Source: Actinomycetospora chiangmaiensis DSM 45062 (GTDB lineage Bacteria; Actinomycetota; Actinomycetes; Mycobacteriales; Pseudonocardiaceae). Taken from it: 64,000 bases of DNA. Shown here piece after piece: positions 11,054 to 18,918 of this stretch. Within the stretch, counting starts at the first letter, position 1, and every line of letters starts with the position of its first letter. The notes under the pieces were generated by a model. The model saw nothing but the letters and a program-made list of their open reading frames with translations. It did not search any database and was not told the origin of the DNA. The DNA lies in NCBI RefSeq assembly GCF_000379625.1, contig NZ_KB903217.1, positions 327,816 to 391,815 of the forward strand. The letters run 5' to 3'. A program made the position numbers and the translations under genes.

Positions 11054-11400
11054 CAGACCTCCACCAGGCCGCAGTCGACGACGAGCGTGCCGGACACCCC
11101 GGCGGGGGCCGCGAAGTGGATCTCCACGGTGCTGCCCGCGAGCAGGTCCTCGACCACCCGCAGCGAGACGTGCATGTCGCTCTTCGCGCCCACCGGCAGC
11201 CACCGCGCGGGAGCGCCGTCGAACGCCAGCACCACCGACGCGAGCTCGTCGGAGGAGTTGCCGGCCCGGACGTAGAGCACCTGGCCGGTGACCCCCTCGG
11301 GCACCGTGTAGGTCAGGGAGGGGTGCAGGAGGGCCGGTTTGTCCAGGCCCTGCCCCTCGAAGGCGAACGCGCCCTGCAGGAAGCGCGGCGTCGTCATCAT
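11053..11400 (-). CDS. Unrecognised 115-aa protein embedded in the nitrate assimilation operon
   Basis: 115 aa beginning MMTTPRFLQGAFAFEGQG. Mostly predicted beta strands (LTYTVPEGVTGQVLYVRAG, TVEIHFAAPAGVSGTLVVD), one cysteine, no signal peptide, no membrane segment, no cofactor motif. It overlaps both neighbours (ATGA with the nitrate reductase stop, TGATG with the nirB start), so it is a true operon member with coupled translation. GGAGAGGA precedes the start. The beta-sandwich look suggests a small binding or scaffolding protein; a chaperone or assembly role for the reductases is inference from position only. Confidence 0.75.
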   Translation of the reverse strand: MMTTPRFLQGAFAFEGQGLDKPALLHPSLTYTVPEGVTGQVLYVRAGNSSDELASVVLAFDGAPARWLPVGAKSDMHVSLRVVEDLLAGSTVEIHFAAPAGVSGTLVVDCGLVEV

Positions 11401-13499
11401 GTGCCGGGGTCCTCTCCGGTGGTGGCTTCGAGGGCGACGGCGCAGACCTTGAACTCCGGCATCCGCGACGCCGGGTCGAGCGCTGGGTTGGTCAGCGCGT
11501 TGATGGTCTGCTCGTCGCCCCAGTGGAACGGGGCGAAGACGGTGTCGGTCCGGATCTCGCGGGACAACCGCACGCGCATCCGCGCGGTGCCACGCCGGGT
11601 CCGCAGGCGGACGTCGGCGCCGTCGGCGAGCCCGAGGTGGGCGGCCAGGTCGGGGTGGATCTCGACGGCGGGGCCGGGCTCGGCGTCGAGCAGGGCCTTC
11701 GTCCGCCGGGTCTGGGTGCCGGACTGGTAGTGGGAGCGGGACCGCCCGGTCGTCAGGCGGTAGGGGTACTCGTCGTCGGGGTCCTCGGCGGCGGCCCGGT
11801 GGTGGACCACGTGGAAGCGGGCCCGGCCGTCCGGGGTGGCGAACCGCTCGCGGAACAGACGCGGGGTGCCCTCGTGCTCCGGATCGGGGCACGGCCAGAA
11901 GACACCGCGCTCGGCCTCGATGCGCTCGTAGGTGATGCCGGCGTAGTCGGCCTTCCCGCCGGCCGAGGCCCGCCCCAGCTCCTCGAACACCGTCTCCGGG
12001 TCGTCGGAGAAGTGCTCGCCCCGGCCGAGACGTCCCGCGAGGTCGTTCAGGACCTCGAGATCCGAACGGACCCCGGACGGCGGCGTCACGGCACGCCGTC
12101 GCCGCAGGACCCGGCCCTCGAGGTTGGTCATCGTGCCCTCCTCCTCGGCCCACTGGACACAGGGCAGGACGACGTCGGCGAGCTCGGCGGTCTCCGAGAG
12201 GAACATGTCGGAGACCACGAGGAAGTCCAGCGACCGCAGCCGCTCGCGCACGTGTCCGGCGCGGGGGGCGCTGACGACGACGTTCGACGCCATGATCATC
12301 AGCGCGCGCACGCCGCCGTCGGTGCCGAGCCGGTCGAGCATCTCGTAGGCCGAGAGCCCGGGCTGCGGCAGCTCGTCGGGGTCGACGCCCCAGACACCCG
12401 CCACGTGGGCGCGGGCGGCCGGGTCGGCGAGCATCCGGTAGCCGGGCAACTGGTCGGCCTTCTGGCCGTGCTCCCGCCCGCCCTGCCCGTTGCCCTGCCC
12501 GGTGACCGTCGCCCAGCCCGAGTACGGCCGGCCCGGCAGGCCCAGGGCGAGGGCGAGGTTGATCCACGCGAGCGCGGTGTCCGAGCCCTTCGCGTGCTGC
12601 TCGGCGCCGCGCGCGGACAGGATCATCGTGGCCCGCGACTCCGCGAGCAGGCGCACCGTGCGCTCCATGACCCGCACCGGCACCCCGGTGATGCGCTCGA
12701 CCCGGTCGGGCCAGTACTGCCGGGCGGCGCGCTTCACCGCGTCCCAGCCCGTCGTCCGGGCCGCGACGTAGGCGGTGTCGACGAGCCGCAGCTTGATCGC
12801 GAGGTGCAGCAGGCCGTTGGCCAGCGCGAGGTCGGTGCCGGGCACGGGCTGCAGGTGGACGTCGGCGGCCGCGGCGGTGGCGGTGTACCGGGGGTCGACG
12901 ACGATGTGCCGGGCCCCGCGCTCCCGGCCCGCGGCGAACCAGCGCATCGCGGGCGGCATCGTGTCGGCGGGGTTGGAGCCGACGAGCAGCACCGTGTCCG
13001 CCCGGGCGACGTCGGCCAGCGGGAACGGCAGGCCGCGGTCGATGCCGAACGCCTTGTTCGACGCGGCGGCGGCGCTCGACATGCAGAACCGGCCGTTGTA
13101 GTCGATCGCGGCGCTGCGCAACGCGACCCGCACGAACTTCCCCGCCTGGTAGGCCTTCTCGTTGGTCAGCCCGCCGCCGCCGAACAGTCCGGCGGCGTCG
13201 CGGCCGTAGCGCTCCTGGGCGACGGTGAGCCCGTCCACCACCCGCGTGAGCGCCTCGTCCCACGTGGCCTCGCGGAACGGCTCGTCGCGGTGGTCGCGCA
13301 CCAGCGGGGTGGTCAGCCGGTCGGGGTGGGCGAGCAGCTCGGCCGAGCTGAGCCCCTTCTCGCAGAGCCCGCCGCGGTTCGTCGGGAAGTTCGCGCCCTC
13401 GACCTCGTAGCCCCCGCCGTCGCTCTCCGGGCGTGGCGTGAGCGTCATGCCGCACTGCAGCGAGCAGTACGGGCAGTGCGTCAGCACGGGGAGGGACAC
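11397..13499 (-). CDS. nasA: Assimilatory nitrate reductase, molybdopterin catalytic subunit
   Basis: 700 aa Mo-bis-MGD oxidoreductase. The N terminus has the [4Fe-4S] motif CPYCSLQC with the downstream C in GGLCEKG; then come the molybdopterin domains (GRFCMSSAAAASNKAFG, VGSNPADTMP, GQGNGQGGREHG) and the C-terminal beta barrel (TTGRSRSHYQSGTQTRRTKAL). No twin-arginine leader, so cytoplasmic. Formate dehydrogenases share the fold, but the operon with nirBD makes nitrate the likely substrate. GTG start at 13499 with GGAG upstream. A GlnR-like box lies 25 bp upstream. The gene name follows common usage; narB or nasC would be equally acceptable. Confidence 0.9.
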   Translation of the reverse strand: MSLPVLTHCPYCSLQCGMTLTPRPESDGGGYEVEGANFPTNRGGLCEKGLSSAELLAHPDRLTTPLVRDHRDEPFREATWDEALTRVVDGLTVAQERYGRDAAGLFGGGGLTNEKAYQAGKFVRVALRSAAIDYNGRFCMSSAAAASNKAFGIDRGLPFPLADVARADTVLLVGSNPADTMPPAMRWFAAGRERGARHIVVDPRYTATAAAADVHLQPVPGTDLALANGLLHLAIKLRLVDTAYVAARTTGWDAVKRAARQYWPDRVERITGVPVRVMERTVRLLAESRATMILSARGAEQHAKGSDTALAWINLALALGLPGRPYSGWATVTGQGNGQGGREHGQKADQLPGYRMLADPAARAHVAGVWGVDPDELPQPGLSAYEMLDRLGTDGGVRALMIMASNVVVSAPRAGHVRERLRSLDFLVVSDMFLSETAELADVVLPCVQWAEEEGTMTNLEGRVLRRRRAVTPPSGVRSDLEVLNDLAGRLGRGEHFSDDPETVFEELGRASAGGKADYAGITYERIEAERGVFWPCPDPEHEGTPRLFRERFATPDGRARFHVVHHRAAAEDPDDEYPYRLTTGRSRSHYQSGTQTRRTKALLDAEPGPAVEIHPDLAAHLGLADGADVRLRTRRGTARMRVRLSREIRTDTVFAPFHWGDEQTINALTNPALDPASRMPEFKVCAVALEATTGEDPGT

Positions 13500-16757: not shown

Positions 16758-17782
16758 TCAGACGGCCGCGAGCGACACGGCGCCCAGGGCCTCGGCCACG
16801 AGGCGGACGGACTGCCGGCGCTCCGCCGGGTCGTGGATCGCCGTCGTGATCATCAGCTCGTCGGCGTCGGCCTCCCGTGCCTTGCGCGCGAGGTCCTCGG
16901 CGACCTGCTCGGGGGTGCCGACCGACACCTTCCCGGCCATCGAGCGGGCGATGTGCTCCTCGGCGGCGGACCAGTCGTGGGCCAGCGCCTCCTCCGGGCT
17001 CGGCAGCGGGCCGGGGTTGCCGGTGCGCAGCCGGGCCATCGAGAGGGCGTTCGCCCGGCCGAGGGCCCGGGCCCGCTCCGGGTCGGGGTGGGCGATCGCG
17101 GCCGCGCCGAGGATGACGTGCGGCTCCTGCGCGCCGGCGGCCGTGCTCGGGCGGAACGACGACCGGTAGATGCGGGTGGCCTCGCCGGCGTCCGCGCCGC
17201 CGAAGTGCCCCGCGTACGCGTACCCGGTGCCGAACGCCGCCGCGGCCTGGGCGCCGTAGTAGCTGGACCCGAGGATCCAGACCGGCGGCAGCGGCACGTC
17301 GTCGGGGGCGGCGACGATCCCGGCGAAGGGGTGGTCGGCCCCGAAGCCGTCCACGTAGCCGCGGAGCTCGGCGAACTGGTCGGGGAAGTCGTCGGCGGTC
17401 AGCGCCTCGTGCGAGCGGCGCAGCGCGATCGCGGTGCGGGGGTCGGTACCAGCGCCCGGCCGAGGCCGAGATCGATGCGGTCGGGGTAGAGCCCCGCGAG
17501 CGCGCGGAAGGTCTCGGCCACCTTCAGCGGGCTGTGGTTCGGCAGCATGATCCCGCCGGAGCCGACCCGGATGGTGGTGGTGGCGCTCGCGACGGCGGCG
17601 ATCATCACCTCGGGCGCGGAGCTCGCGACGCTCGCGATGCCGTGGTGCTCGGCGAGCCAGTAGCGGCGGTATCCGGCGGCCTCCGCGGTGCGGGCGAGCT
17701 CGACGGTGTCGTGCAGGGCCTGCGAGGCGGGCGCACCGGAGGGGACCGGGGAGAGGTCGAGAACCGAGATCGGGATGCCCAT
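16758..17782 (-). pseudogene. LLM-class flavin-dependent monooxygenase, disrupted by a -1 frameshift
   Basis: The N-terminal part (from ATG 17782, [16 protein letters not shown]) and C-terminal part (to stop 16758) together make a complete MsnO8-like luciferase-family protein of about 340 aa. The frames break at about 17451. The family motif [19 protein letters not shown] needs one more base there: the minus strand reads GCG-CT-GGT-ACC where GCG-CCN-GGN-ACC is expected. No other damage is seen in either half. This is either a recent inactivating deletion or a sequencing/assembly error. The intact enzyme would use FMNH2 and O2 on an unknown substrate. Confidence 0.8.
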
Positions 17783-17830
17783 GTGGGAGTCCAACGCCGG
17801 ATCGGTGGGCCGGGATTCCCGACCGGCACC

Positions 17831-17849: not shown

Positions 17850-18458
17850 TCAGCCCTCCGGGAGGTCCGGCATCCGCACCGCGCAGGCGTTGGTCGCCTC
17901 CGAGGTGATGCCGTCGAGGTCCGTCCGGACGGTGGCGTGGAACCGGCTCACCAGCTGATCCAGGCCCACGGTGAAGGAGATCTCCATGATCTGCTTCGTG
18001 TCGAAGTGCTCCGACAGCTTCTTGTAGATGTCATCGCTGATCGGCTGCATCCAGGTGGACGTCCGCGCGAACACGATGATCGCCTCCTCGGGGGGCGAGA
18101 ACATGCCCTCCGGGAGCGGGTCGTCGAGGAGGTGGCTCATCTCCTCGTCGGTCAACCCCGATGCTCGACCGAGCACCACGTGGGTCGGCGTTCAATAGAA
18201 GCAGTTGTTCGCCATCGCGCTGGTCAGGTACGGGAGCTCCCGCATCCTCGCCGTCGGCAGCGAGTTGTCGAAGTACACGGTGGTGGCGAGGGCCATGAAC
18301 TGCTCCATGGCCACCGGGTGGTTCGACAGGGCACGGTGCACGTTGAGCAGCCCGACGTCGGGCTGGGCGGCGTGCACGGCCTCGAGCAGTGCCTTCGCGT
18401 GCGGGTCGAGGCCGGGGTCGTCGGGATCGTTCAGCGGTACGCGGGCCACGGGGGCCAC
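17850..18458 (-). CDS. AhpD-like carboxymuconolactone decarboxylase family protein, candidate selenoprotein (in-frame UGA)
   Basis: Read through one UGA (18194-18192), the frame gives 202 residues aligned end to end with AhpD/CMD-family proteins ([37 protein letters not shown]). The family active site is E-x11-C-x2-C-x3-H. Here it is E74, C86-F-Y-U89, then H93: the UGA falls exactly on the second, nucleophilic cysteine. Codons after it remain in frame and conserved for 113 residues. A SECIS-like stem-loop starts soon after the UGA. Members are thiol-dependent peroxidase or disulfide-reductase-like enzymes. GTG start at 18458; a second GTG at 18449 has a better ribosome site (GGAAGGTGG). The alternative is a nonsense mutation of a Cys codon (TGC/TGT to TGA). 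Standard gene callers would report two short genes. Confidence 0.7.
18155..18185 (-). other. SECIS-like stem-loop downstream of the in-frame UGA
   Basis: In the mRNA, 14 nt after the UGA, GGUGCUC-GGUC-GAGCAUC (18177 to 18160) forms a 7-bp stem (one G-U) with a GGUC loop. A lower stem ACCC/GGGU (18185-18182 with 18158-18155) encloses a bulge that includes a U. The loop begins 21 nt after the UGA, inside the usual bacterial SECIS window. E. coli fdhF has the same GGUC in its SelB-binding loop and a bulged U (known family feature). Function here is inferred. Confidence 0.55.
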
Positions 18459-18525
18459 CTTCCGATCGGGTTCAGCTGGCCCGTCGATGCTGCGAAGGCG
18501 ACGTTGCGCGCACGTTGACGGCGGA

Positions 18526-18918
18526 TCACATCGGCGGGACCAGGAGTGTCAGCAGGTCCTCGCGGCCGAACATCCGTGCGGTGTCGACGGCGGTCGGGTG
18601 GCCGCTCAGCGGGTCCGCCCCGGCGTCGACCAGCGCCCGCACGACGTCGTCCTCGCCCTTGAACACCGCACCTGCCAGCGGGGCCTGGCCGCGGTCGTTC
18701 ACGCGGTCCACGTCGGCGCCGCGGGCGGTCAGTGCGCGGACCGCGGGCGCGTGCCCGTGGTAGGCGGCGAGCATGAGCAGCGTGTCGCCGGCGTCGTTCG
18801 TGAGGTTGACCGGAACCCCGGCGTCGACGTAGGCGGCCAGCGTGTCGGCGTCGCCGTGCCGGGCCATGTCGAACACCCGGCCGGCGAGCTCGGAGACCTC
18901 CGTGGGGGGTTCGCTCAC
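18526..18918 (-). CDS. Ankyrin repeat protein
   Basis: 130 aa, GTG start (18918). It contains about three ankyrin repeats: DADTLAAYVDAGVPVNLTNDAG, DTLLMLAAYHGHAPAVRALTARGADVDR, and APLAGAVFKGEDDVVRALVDAGADP. Each has the helix-turn-helix-loop signature. No signal peptide or extra domain. Such short bacterial ankyrin proteins mediate protein binding; the partner is unknown. It follows the zinc-ribbon membrane protein gene by 12 bp on the same strand, so the two are probably co-transcribed. Confidence 0.85.
   Translation of the reverse strand: MSEPPTEVSELAGRVFDMARHGDADTLAAYVDAGVPVNLTNDAGDTLLMLAAYHGHAPAVRALTARGADVDRVNDRGQAPLAGAVFKGEDDVVRALVDAGADPLSGHPTAVDTARMFGREDLLTLLVPPM

What the first reader, a model, noticed from the sequence alone, without database searches (positions are those of the whole stretch)
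17850..18458. Candidate selenoprotein: AhpD-like protein with UGA at the nucleophilic cysteine (CxxU)
Two apparently separate short genes join into one normal-length AhpD/CMD-family protein if the UGA at 18194-18192 is read. The UGA replaces exactly the second Cys of the family motif E-x11-C-x2-C-x3-H (E74, C86, U89, H93), which is the peroxide-reactive residue in AhpD. The frame continues without other damage for 113 codons. I recall AhpD-like selenoproteins from metagenome surveys, so the family tolerates Sec. For this actinobacterial lineage it may be undescribed, and annotation pipelines would split or pseudogenise it.
Basis: partly seen in the sequence, partly recalled or inferred. Interest (0 to 1): 0.93.

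Follow-up and report, generated by a model that had tools for sequence, protein, structure and literature searches.

The report
Selenium-containing AhpD-like redox protein
An actinobacterium very probably reads an apparent stop codon as selenocysteine, which joins two apparent gene fragments into one intact AhpD-like redox protein with selenium in its active site; such proteins are a known kind, but this one scores below the cut-offs of the named selenoprotein families it was compared with.

Summary
Window 18449-17850 (minus strand) is one 199-codon AhpD/CMD gene interrupted only by TGA at 18194-18192. That codon sits at the second Cys of the motif E-x11-C-x2-C-x3-H.

Error or pseudogene is very unlikely. 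Seventeen places in 15 Actinomycetota genomes all carry TGA there; no Cys form reached the thresholds used. The UGA is followed after 21 nt by a GGUC loop on an 8-bp stem. It meets a published bacterial SECIS model and shows compensatory changes.

The genome has tRNA-Sec, selA, selB and two Sec formate dehydrogenases. In two of three genomes of another genus, tRNA-Sec lies about 40 bp upstream of this gene.

The likely role is a C-x-x-U peroxide or thiol-disulfide oxidoreductase, inferred from motif and fold. AhpD-like CxxU selenoproteins are known. None of 15 members reaches the cut-off of a curated (seleno)protein family model; 4 pass the general AhpD domain model. I call it a new subfamily of a known kind. 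Sec incorporation itself was not observed.

The parts
17850..18449 (-). ahpD-U: AhpD/CMD-family selenoprotein gene, GTG start, 199 codons, internal UGA at codon 86, terminal TGA 17852-17850
   Evidence: AF2 model (Cys standing for Sec) mean pLDDT 89.1
18192..18194 (-). UGA read as selenocysteine (Sec86), second position of C-F-Y-U; with Glu71, Cys83, Tyr85 and His90 it matches the AhpD proton relay
   Evidence: TGA in 17 of 17 places; E71, C83, Y85, U86, H90 invariant in 15 of 15 aligned
18153..18187 (-). bacterial SECIS: upper stem 8 bp (18178-18171 with 18166-18159), apical loop GGUC (18170-18167), lower stem 6 bp (18187-18182 with 18158-18153)
18458..18463 (-). Shine-Dalgarno GGAAGG upstream of GTG 18449
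   Evidence: GGAAGG or GGAGG in 8 of the 10 places listed, not in L009 and L010
16758..17794 (-). downstream LLM-class (MsnO8-family) oxidoreductase gene, next to ahpD-U in all 6 Actinomycetospora loci compared; 1-nt frameshift in this assembly near 17452
18526..18918 (-). upstream ankyrin-repeat gene, a syntenic neighbour; not thought part of the function

Best explanation
The locus encodes a full-length selenoprotein. UGA at codon 86 is decoded as Sec by the genome's SelB and tRNA-Sec, directed by a stem-loop just downstream whose GGUC apical loop begins 21 nt after the UGA. The product is an all-helical AhpD/CMD-fold oxidoreductase with active site Glu71 - Cys83-Phe-Tyr-Sec86 - His90. Most likely it cycles through a Cys-Sec selenenylsulfide, reducing peroxides or relaying electrons to a partner such as a peroxidase. 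Shown computationally: intact frame, UGA conservation, SECIS, machinery, fold and motif. Inferred: Sec insertion in the cell, redox cycle, substrate and partner. The confidence given is for the selenoprotein; for the peroxide/thiol role alone it is about 0.6.
For: TGA at the same column in 17 of 17 places from 15 genomes, with no Cys form at the thresholds used. SECIS stem: 8 of 8 pairs in 14 of 17 places and 7 of 8 in the other three (loop length 4 or 5 nt chosen per sequence for most pairs); both-side pair changes at stem positions 2, 3, 6 and 7; GGT at codon +8 in 16 of 17 against 3 of 81 Gly codons elsewhere in ten of these genes. Fourfold-site divergence 0.19 in codons +1..+15 against 0.37 in the rest, ten sequences. 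Synonymous recoding reaches the stem length in 41 of 5000 trials for this gene. tRNA-Sec 70.3 bits against 47, SelB 265.4 against 242.25, SelA 382.9 against 267.9; among 14 control genomes these models passed their cut-offs in 5, 2 and 1. Two FdhA genes of the same genome have an in-frame TGA each, and both carry the hairpin sequence GUCCCC-GGUCU-GGGGAC. tRNA-Sec directly upstream of ahpD-U in two of three g5 genomes, with selD, selA and selB within about 10 kb in one. Fold: the best PDB matches are AhpD-type proteins. Published selenium-dependent formate oxidation and expressed SelA/B/D in Actinomycetospora chiangmaiensis (PMC7176365, passages).
Against: No protein-level evidence. Against dinucleotide shuffles the 45-nt fold is only moderately unusual (z -1.87, 8 of 200 as good; upper stem z -2.79, 2 of 200). 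No Rfam SECIS family matches it, even at E 10. L007 has a mismatch in the stem; the MFE folds of L007, L008 and L011 and of the second FdhA, L044, are not the SECIS fold. In the recoding test the rate for other members ran up to 10% (L009) and 21% (L007). Other stretches are as quiet at synonymous sites: among the six Actinomycetospora, 12-codon windows starting at +13 to +17 show no fourfold difference, quieter than +1..+12 (0.13 against 0.27 for the rest). selA is in 17 of 18 genomes of the genus, so co-occurrence there says little. In Actinomycetospora and in G212 tRNA-Sec is not near the gene in the stretches held. selD not located in this genome.
Confidence: 0.9

Rival explanations
1. The gene is a pseudogene or a sequencing error: the TGA is a nonsense change or a misread Cys codon.
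For: The downstream LLM gene carries a 1-nt frameshift in this assembly, so the assembly or the locus is not flawless; two distant copies of the gene are frameshifted.
Against: The same TGA is in 17 of 17 places in 15 genomes; changes are mostly synonymous on both sides of it against the two closest relatives; residues downstream of it, such as H90, R169, F170 and H171, are invariant in 15 of 15.
Confidence: 0.02
2. UGA is read through by something other than Sec (near-cognate tRNA or programmed read-through), or the gene makes a deliberately truncated protein.
For: Only sequence evidence is at hand; truncation at low selenium is expected for any selenoprotein (inference).
Against: The SECIS-like stem has compensatory changes and a GGUC loop that the genome's FdhA genes share; tRNA-Sec adjoins the gene in two genomes of another genus; the UGA falls on the redox Cys column.
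Confidence: 0.05
3. It is a selenoprotein but not a peroxide- or thiol-active AhpD; it uses the Cys-Sec pair for other chemistry, such as reductive dehalogenation as in Bmp8, or a task within selenium metabolism.
For: Debrominase Bmp8 is among the closest folds; in G237 the gene lies within about 10 kb of Cds1, selD, selA and selB; neighbours differ between genera.
Against: The full AhpD relay (Glu, Cys, Tyr, Cys/Sec, His) is conserved; fold matches are mostly AhpD or peroxidase-related proteins. No substrate evidence for any alternative.
Confidence: 0.3

Closest known systems
AhpD-related (seleno)protein NF041238 (AhpD_rel_CFYUT; 'hypothetical protein 1' of the Sargasso Sea survey)
   Same: AhpD-related, CxxU; the model's name gives the same C-F-Y-U-T signature as this protein
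   Different: 33.2 bits against a cut-off of 175, 74 residues aligned to a 357-position model; highest among members 38.9
AhpD-like selenoprotein of COG2128/YciW type (TIGR01926; Sargasso Sea, GOS)
   Same: Peroxidase-related AhpD type, CxxU, similar length; all 15 members hit TIGR01926 (PMC1088965, PMC2398784, PMC9312934, passages)
   Different: 32.8 bits for this protein, 31.4 to 69.2 across 15 members, against a cut-off of 81.8; L072 comes nearest. The subfamily here has no Cys form in the genomes searched
YciW-related (seleno)protein NF053654 (GroundWater_YciW)
   Same: All 15 members hit it weakly; similar length
   Different: 29.0 bits for this protein, at most 45.0 among members, against a cut-off of 310
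AhpD-type proteins of solved structure (PA0269 2o4d, 2prr, 6e8l, Bmp8 6ohi)
   Same: Fold (TM by query 0.62-0.75); relay Glu-Cys-Tyr-Cys-His of PA0269
   Different: PA0269 and its relatives have Cys-x-x-Cys, not Sec (passages; for Bmp8 recalled); 13-23% identity

Membership tests
Bacterial selenoprotein | In-frame UGA at a redox Cys position, conserved in orthologues | tested here: met
   17 of 17 places
Bacterial selenoprotein | bSECIS: loop 3-9 nt, stem 4-16 bp, G in first two loop positions, 16-37 nt from UGA, MFE <= -7.5 (PMC13188914, Fig. 2 legend) | tested here: met
   Loop GGUC 4 nt, stem 8 bp, 21 nt, -19.5 kcal/mol (-10.5 upper part) for this gene
Bacterial selenoprotein | Sec machinery in the genome: tRNA-Sec, SelA, SelB | tested here: met
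   All three over their cut-offs
Bacterial selenoprotein | SelD in the genome | tested here: inconclusive
   Not found on contig C12; rest of the genome not searched. SelD is reported in A. chiangmaiensis (PMC7176365, passage)
Bacterial selenoprotein | Selenium in the purified protein | not testable with these tools
   Needs MS or 75Se
AhpD/CMD superfamily (PF02627) | Pfam gathering score | tested here: met
   36.1 against 23 bits for this protein; 15 of 15 members match at E<=0.001
AhpD core domain TIGR00778 | Curated score 27.8 bits | tested here: not met
   Not listed at E<=0.001 for this protein; 4 of 15 members pass (L009 34.1, L010 34.3, L052 39.6, L071 30.1)
AhpD-like peroxidases | E-x11-C-x2-C-x3-H with Tyr/His in the spacer | tested here: met
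   E71, C83, Y85, U86, H90 in 15 of 15, with U at the second Cys
AhpD-like peroxidases | Peroxidase or adaptor activity | not testable with these tools
   Needs enzyme assays
NF041238 AhpD_rel_CFYUT | Curated score 175 bits | tested here: not met
   33.2 bits; at most 38.9 among members
TIGR01926 peroxidase-related | Curated score 81.8 bits | tested here: not met
   32.8 bits; 31.4-69.2 across 15 members
NF053654 GroundWater_YciW | Curated score 310 bits | tested here: not met
   29.0 bits; at most 45.0 among members

The most novel reading that the evidence does not exclude
An AhpD subfamily of Actinomycetota that exists only in the Sec form: no Cys orthologue, absent outright rather than converted to Cys (12 of 18 genomes of the genus show no match at E<=1e-20, though 17 of 18 have selA), and in two of three g5 genomes placed behind tRNA-Sec, in one of them within about 10 kb of selD-selA-selB. 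This hints at a dedicated role in selenium or redox homeostasis of these actinobacteria.
Probability: 0.35. Interest if true: 0.6.

Novelty: new member of a known kind. Interest (0 to 1): 0.45.

Why it matters
It adds what looks like an un-modelled selenoprotein subfamily in Actinomycetota. Because it falls below the cut-offs of the curated (seleno)protein models, annotation would be expected to split it or call it a pseudogene (inference). Its seeming lack of Cys forms and its tRNA-Sec neighbour in another genus make it a tractable case for asking why some proteins keep selenium. Actinomycetospora already has a published selenium-dependent growth system (PMC7176365, passages) in which this could be tested.

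Tried and rejected
Pseudogene or sequencing error: rejected by 17 of 17 conservation. Chance stem: the pattern TGA-N21-GGTC alone occurs 15 times in the window (9.5 expected; 4 of 100 shuffles reach 15), so the loop motif by itself proves nothing; the stem, its compensatory changes and the rare GGT codon carry the argument. Rfam at E<=10 gave no SECIS family for this gene; the FdhA SECIS of the same genome reached only 19.4 bits against 63 for SECIS_3, so Rfam is not sensitive here. Plasmid records: no match at E<=1e-10.

Rows dropped. At E<=1e-15 in the class (394 genomes) 11 genomes match: the own genome, G382, and 9 genomes with 10 weaker places at 59-68 bits. None of those 10 has TGA at the motif; 1 (L061) has CxxC, 7 have a single Cys, 2 have none; the TGA flagged in L053 and L059 is the terminal stop. 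I took them for other subfamilies and left them out of the orthologue count. A second own-genome match (L002, 30% identity, 5.7e-9) lacks the motif and was left out. L034 and L035 (Streptomyces, 23%) were not examined. L073 and L074 (frameshifted) and L067, L068 (repeats) are not in protein alignment A3, but L073 and L074 are counted in the 17 places.

Limits. Genome searches scored at most 8 to 14 candidates per genome where more were found, in samples, not all genomes; a Cys orthologue could have been missed. Co-occurrence with Sec machinery inside the genus was uninformative. A selA or selB survey of the whole family was not run; selB was asked of 9 genomes with the gene (8 over cut-off, G212 at 230.4 against 242.25) and of 2 others. 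The five f58 genomes were not asked. Paper searches for Bmp8 and for alkylhydroperoxidase + selenocysteine + actinobacteria found nothing.

Full report
OBSERVATION. On the minus strand the frame 18458-17850 contains TGA at 18194-18192 and ends at TGA 17852-17850. The two pieces are listed as separate ORFs of 88 and 109 aa, and neither matches Pfam alone at E<=0.001, while the joined frame matches CMD PF02627 (6.6e-9). Aligned relatives begin at the second in-frame GTG, 18449, with GGAAGG before it, so the protein has 199 codons and the UGA is codon 86. The motif is E71-x11-C83-F-Y-U86-x3-H90.

THE UGA IS CONSERVED. The search of 297 family genomes found 10 places in 9 genomes at E<=1e-20: six genomes of the window's genus and three of another genus, g5. 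Named records in genome contigs point to Actinomycetospora: NBRC 106378 at 96%, A. endophytica 83%, TBRC 11914 81%, A. chibensis 79%. All 10 places have TGA at the same column. A class sample (394 genomes, E<=1e-15) added G382 of another family; the order of G382 (13 genomes, E<=1e-25) added no other. A phylum sample (396 genomes, E<=1e-25) and the family of G757 (39 genomes, E<=1e-20) added six places in five genomes of family f58, again with TGA at the motif. The total is 17 places in 15 genomes, 17 with TGA and 0 with Cys. The samples overlap, and in large candidate lists only the best few per genome were scored. Two of the 17 (L073, L074) are frameshifted elsewhere. The next homologues in the class drop to 59-68 bits and look like other subfamilies; only 1 of those 10 places has CxxC.

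SECIS. UGA is followed after 21 nt by a GGUC loop on an 8-bp stem, with a 6-bp lower stem; MFE -19.5 kcal/mol for UGA plus 42 nt, -10.5 for the upper part. This meets all four limits of the bacterial SECIS model as given in a 2026 review (PMC13188914, Fig. 2 legend passage). Of 17 places 14 form 8 of 8 pairs and three form 7 of 8; stem positions 2, 3, 6 and 7 show both-side changes. The loop is 4 or 5 nt by lineage, chosen per sequence for most pairs, which favours the structure somewhat. Codon +8 is GGT in 16 of 17 (L074 has TGT), while GGT is 3 of 81 Gly codons elsewhere in ten of these genes; in eight genes of the window GGT, CGA and GCA are 6.3, 2.0 and 1.7% of their amino acids' codons. 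Fourfold sites in codons +1..+15 differ in 0.19 of comparisons against 0.37 in the rest. Random synonymous recoding with the window's codon usage reaches the stem length in 41 of 5000 trials for this gene; for the nine genes tested the rate ran from 0.8 to 21%, the worst being L007. Results that weaken this: shuffles give only z -1.87 for the 45-nt fold and -2.79 for the upper stem; the MFE folds of L007, L008 and L011 are not the SECIS fold; among the six Actinomycetospora, windows starting at +13 to +17 are quieter still at fourfold sites; Rfam has no matching SECIS family.

MACHINERY. The genome has tRNA-Sec (70.3 bits against 47, C12:7079-7170; ARAGORN anticodon tca), SelB (265.4 with its neighbours in the frame, against 242.25) and SelA (382.9 against 267.9). 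In the 14 control genomes these models passed their cut-offs in 5, 2 and 1. Two formate dehydrogenase FdhA genes have one in-frame TGA each, followed by the hairpin sequence GUCCCC-GGUCU-GGGGAC; it is the MFE fold in one of the two. selA is in 17 of 18 genomes of the genus, including all 6 with the gene. selB was over cut-off in 8 of the 9 gene-bearing genomes asked; G212 was just under. selD was not found on contig C12, and the rest of the genome was not searched for it. In Actinomycetospora chiangmaiensis formate oxidation depends on selenium and SelA, SelB and SelD were detected (PMC7176365, passages); whether that strain has ahpD-U was not checked.

CONTEXT. In Actinomycetospora the gene sits between an ankyrin-repeat gene and an LLM oxidoreductase in a block with Pnt and a NasC-like gene; the LLM neighbour is kept in all 6 loci compared, window included, although A. 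chibensis is rearranged around it. In the g5 stretches held (L038-L041) none of the window's neighbours was found. L040 and L041 have tRNA-Sec ending about 40 bp before the ahpD-U start; the two loci of G212 (L038, L039) have none. In G237 an L-cysteine desulfhydrase (Cds1), selD, selA and selB lie within about 10 kb of that tRNA-Sec; in G122 they are on another contig.

PROTEIN. AF2 on the 15-row alignment, with Cys for Sec, gives mean pLDDT 89.1. The best PDB matches are AhpD-core and peroxidase-related proteins and debrominase Bmp8; by sequence profile 2ouw, 2gmy and PA0269 come first. The relay Glu36-Cys48-Tyr50-Cys51-His55 of PA0269 (PMC3141380, abstract and passages) corresponds to Glu71-Cys83-Tyr85-Sec86-His90, invariant in 15 of 15. 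The distances in the model were not measured. From this I infer a Cys-Sec redox pair; substrate and partner are unknown.

COMPARISON. AhpD-like, distant AhpD, CMD-like and NF041238 CxxU selenoproteins are catalogued (PMC13188914, passages; PMC1088965, PMC9312934, PMC2398784, PMC1794560, passages). Across the 15 members the scores are 31.4-69.2 for TIGR01926 (cut-off 81.8), at most 38.9 for NF041238 (175) and at most 45.0 for NF053654 (310); only the general domain model TIGR00778 (27.8) is passed, by 4 of 15 and not by this protein. I found no paper naming this branch in searches (open-licence library only; I read passages, not whole papers). Supplementary tables were not readable, so earlier listing cannot be excluded: PMC1794560 counts 12 selenoprotein families in Actinobacteria and, as I read its table, five selenoproteins in Rubrobacter xylanophilus, of which the passage names only SelD.

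VERDICT. A real selenoprotein (about 0.95 for Sec at this UGA; about 0.6 for the peroxide/thiol redox role), forming a new subfamily of a known kind.

Noticed in passing
window 16758-17794 (-): The LLM (MsnO8-family) gene next door is split by a 1-nt deletion near 17452 relative to L030; by the coordinates the five relatives have both parts in one reading frame. Recent pseudogene or assembly error.
   Followed up: partly
L040:6229-6362 and L041:1965-2098: In two g5 genomes tRNA-Sec lies about 40 bp upstream of ahpD-U; in the window's genome tRNA-Sec instead lies just upstream of fdhA (C12:7079-7251).
   Followed up: yes
L005, L006 against window 17850-18191: The half after the UGA differs from L005/L006 at few synonymous codons (5 and 6) compared with the half before it (16 and 19), which hints at recombination within the gene.
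   Followed up: no
L073 and L074: Two f58 copies keep the UGA motif and stem but are frameshifted, upstream and downstream respectively.
   Followed up: no
G212:C1, L008 and L011: One g5 genome carries two ahpD-U copies, both with TGA.
   Followed up: no
window 11397-13499 (-): A NasC/formate-dehydrogenase-like molybdopterin oxidoreductase, without an in-frame TGA, lies about 4.4 kb away.
   Followed up: no
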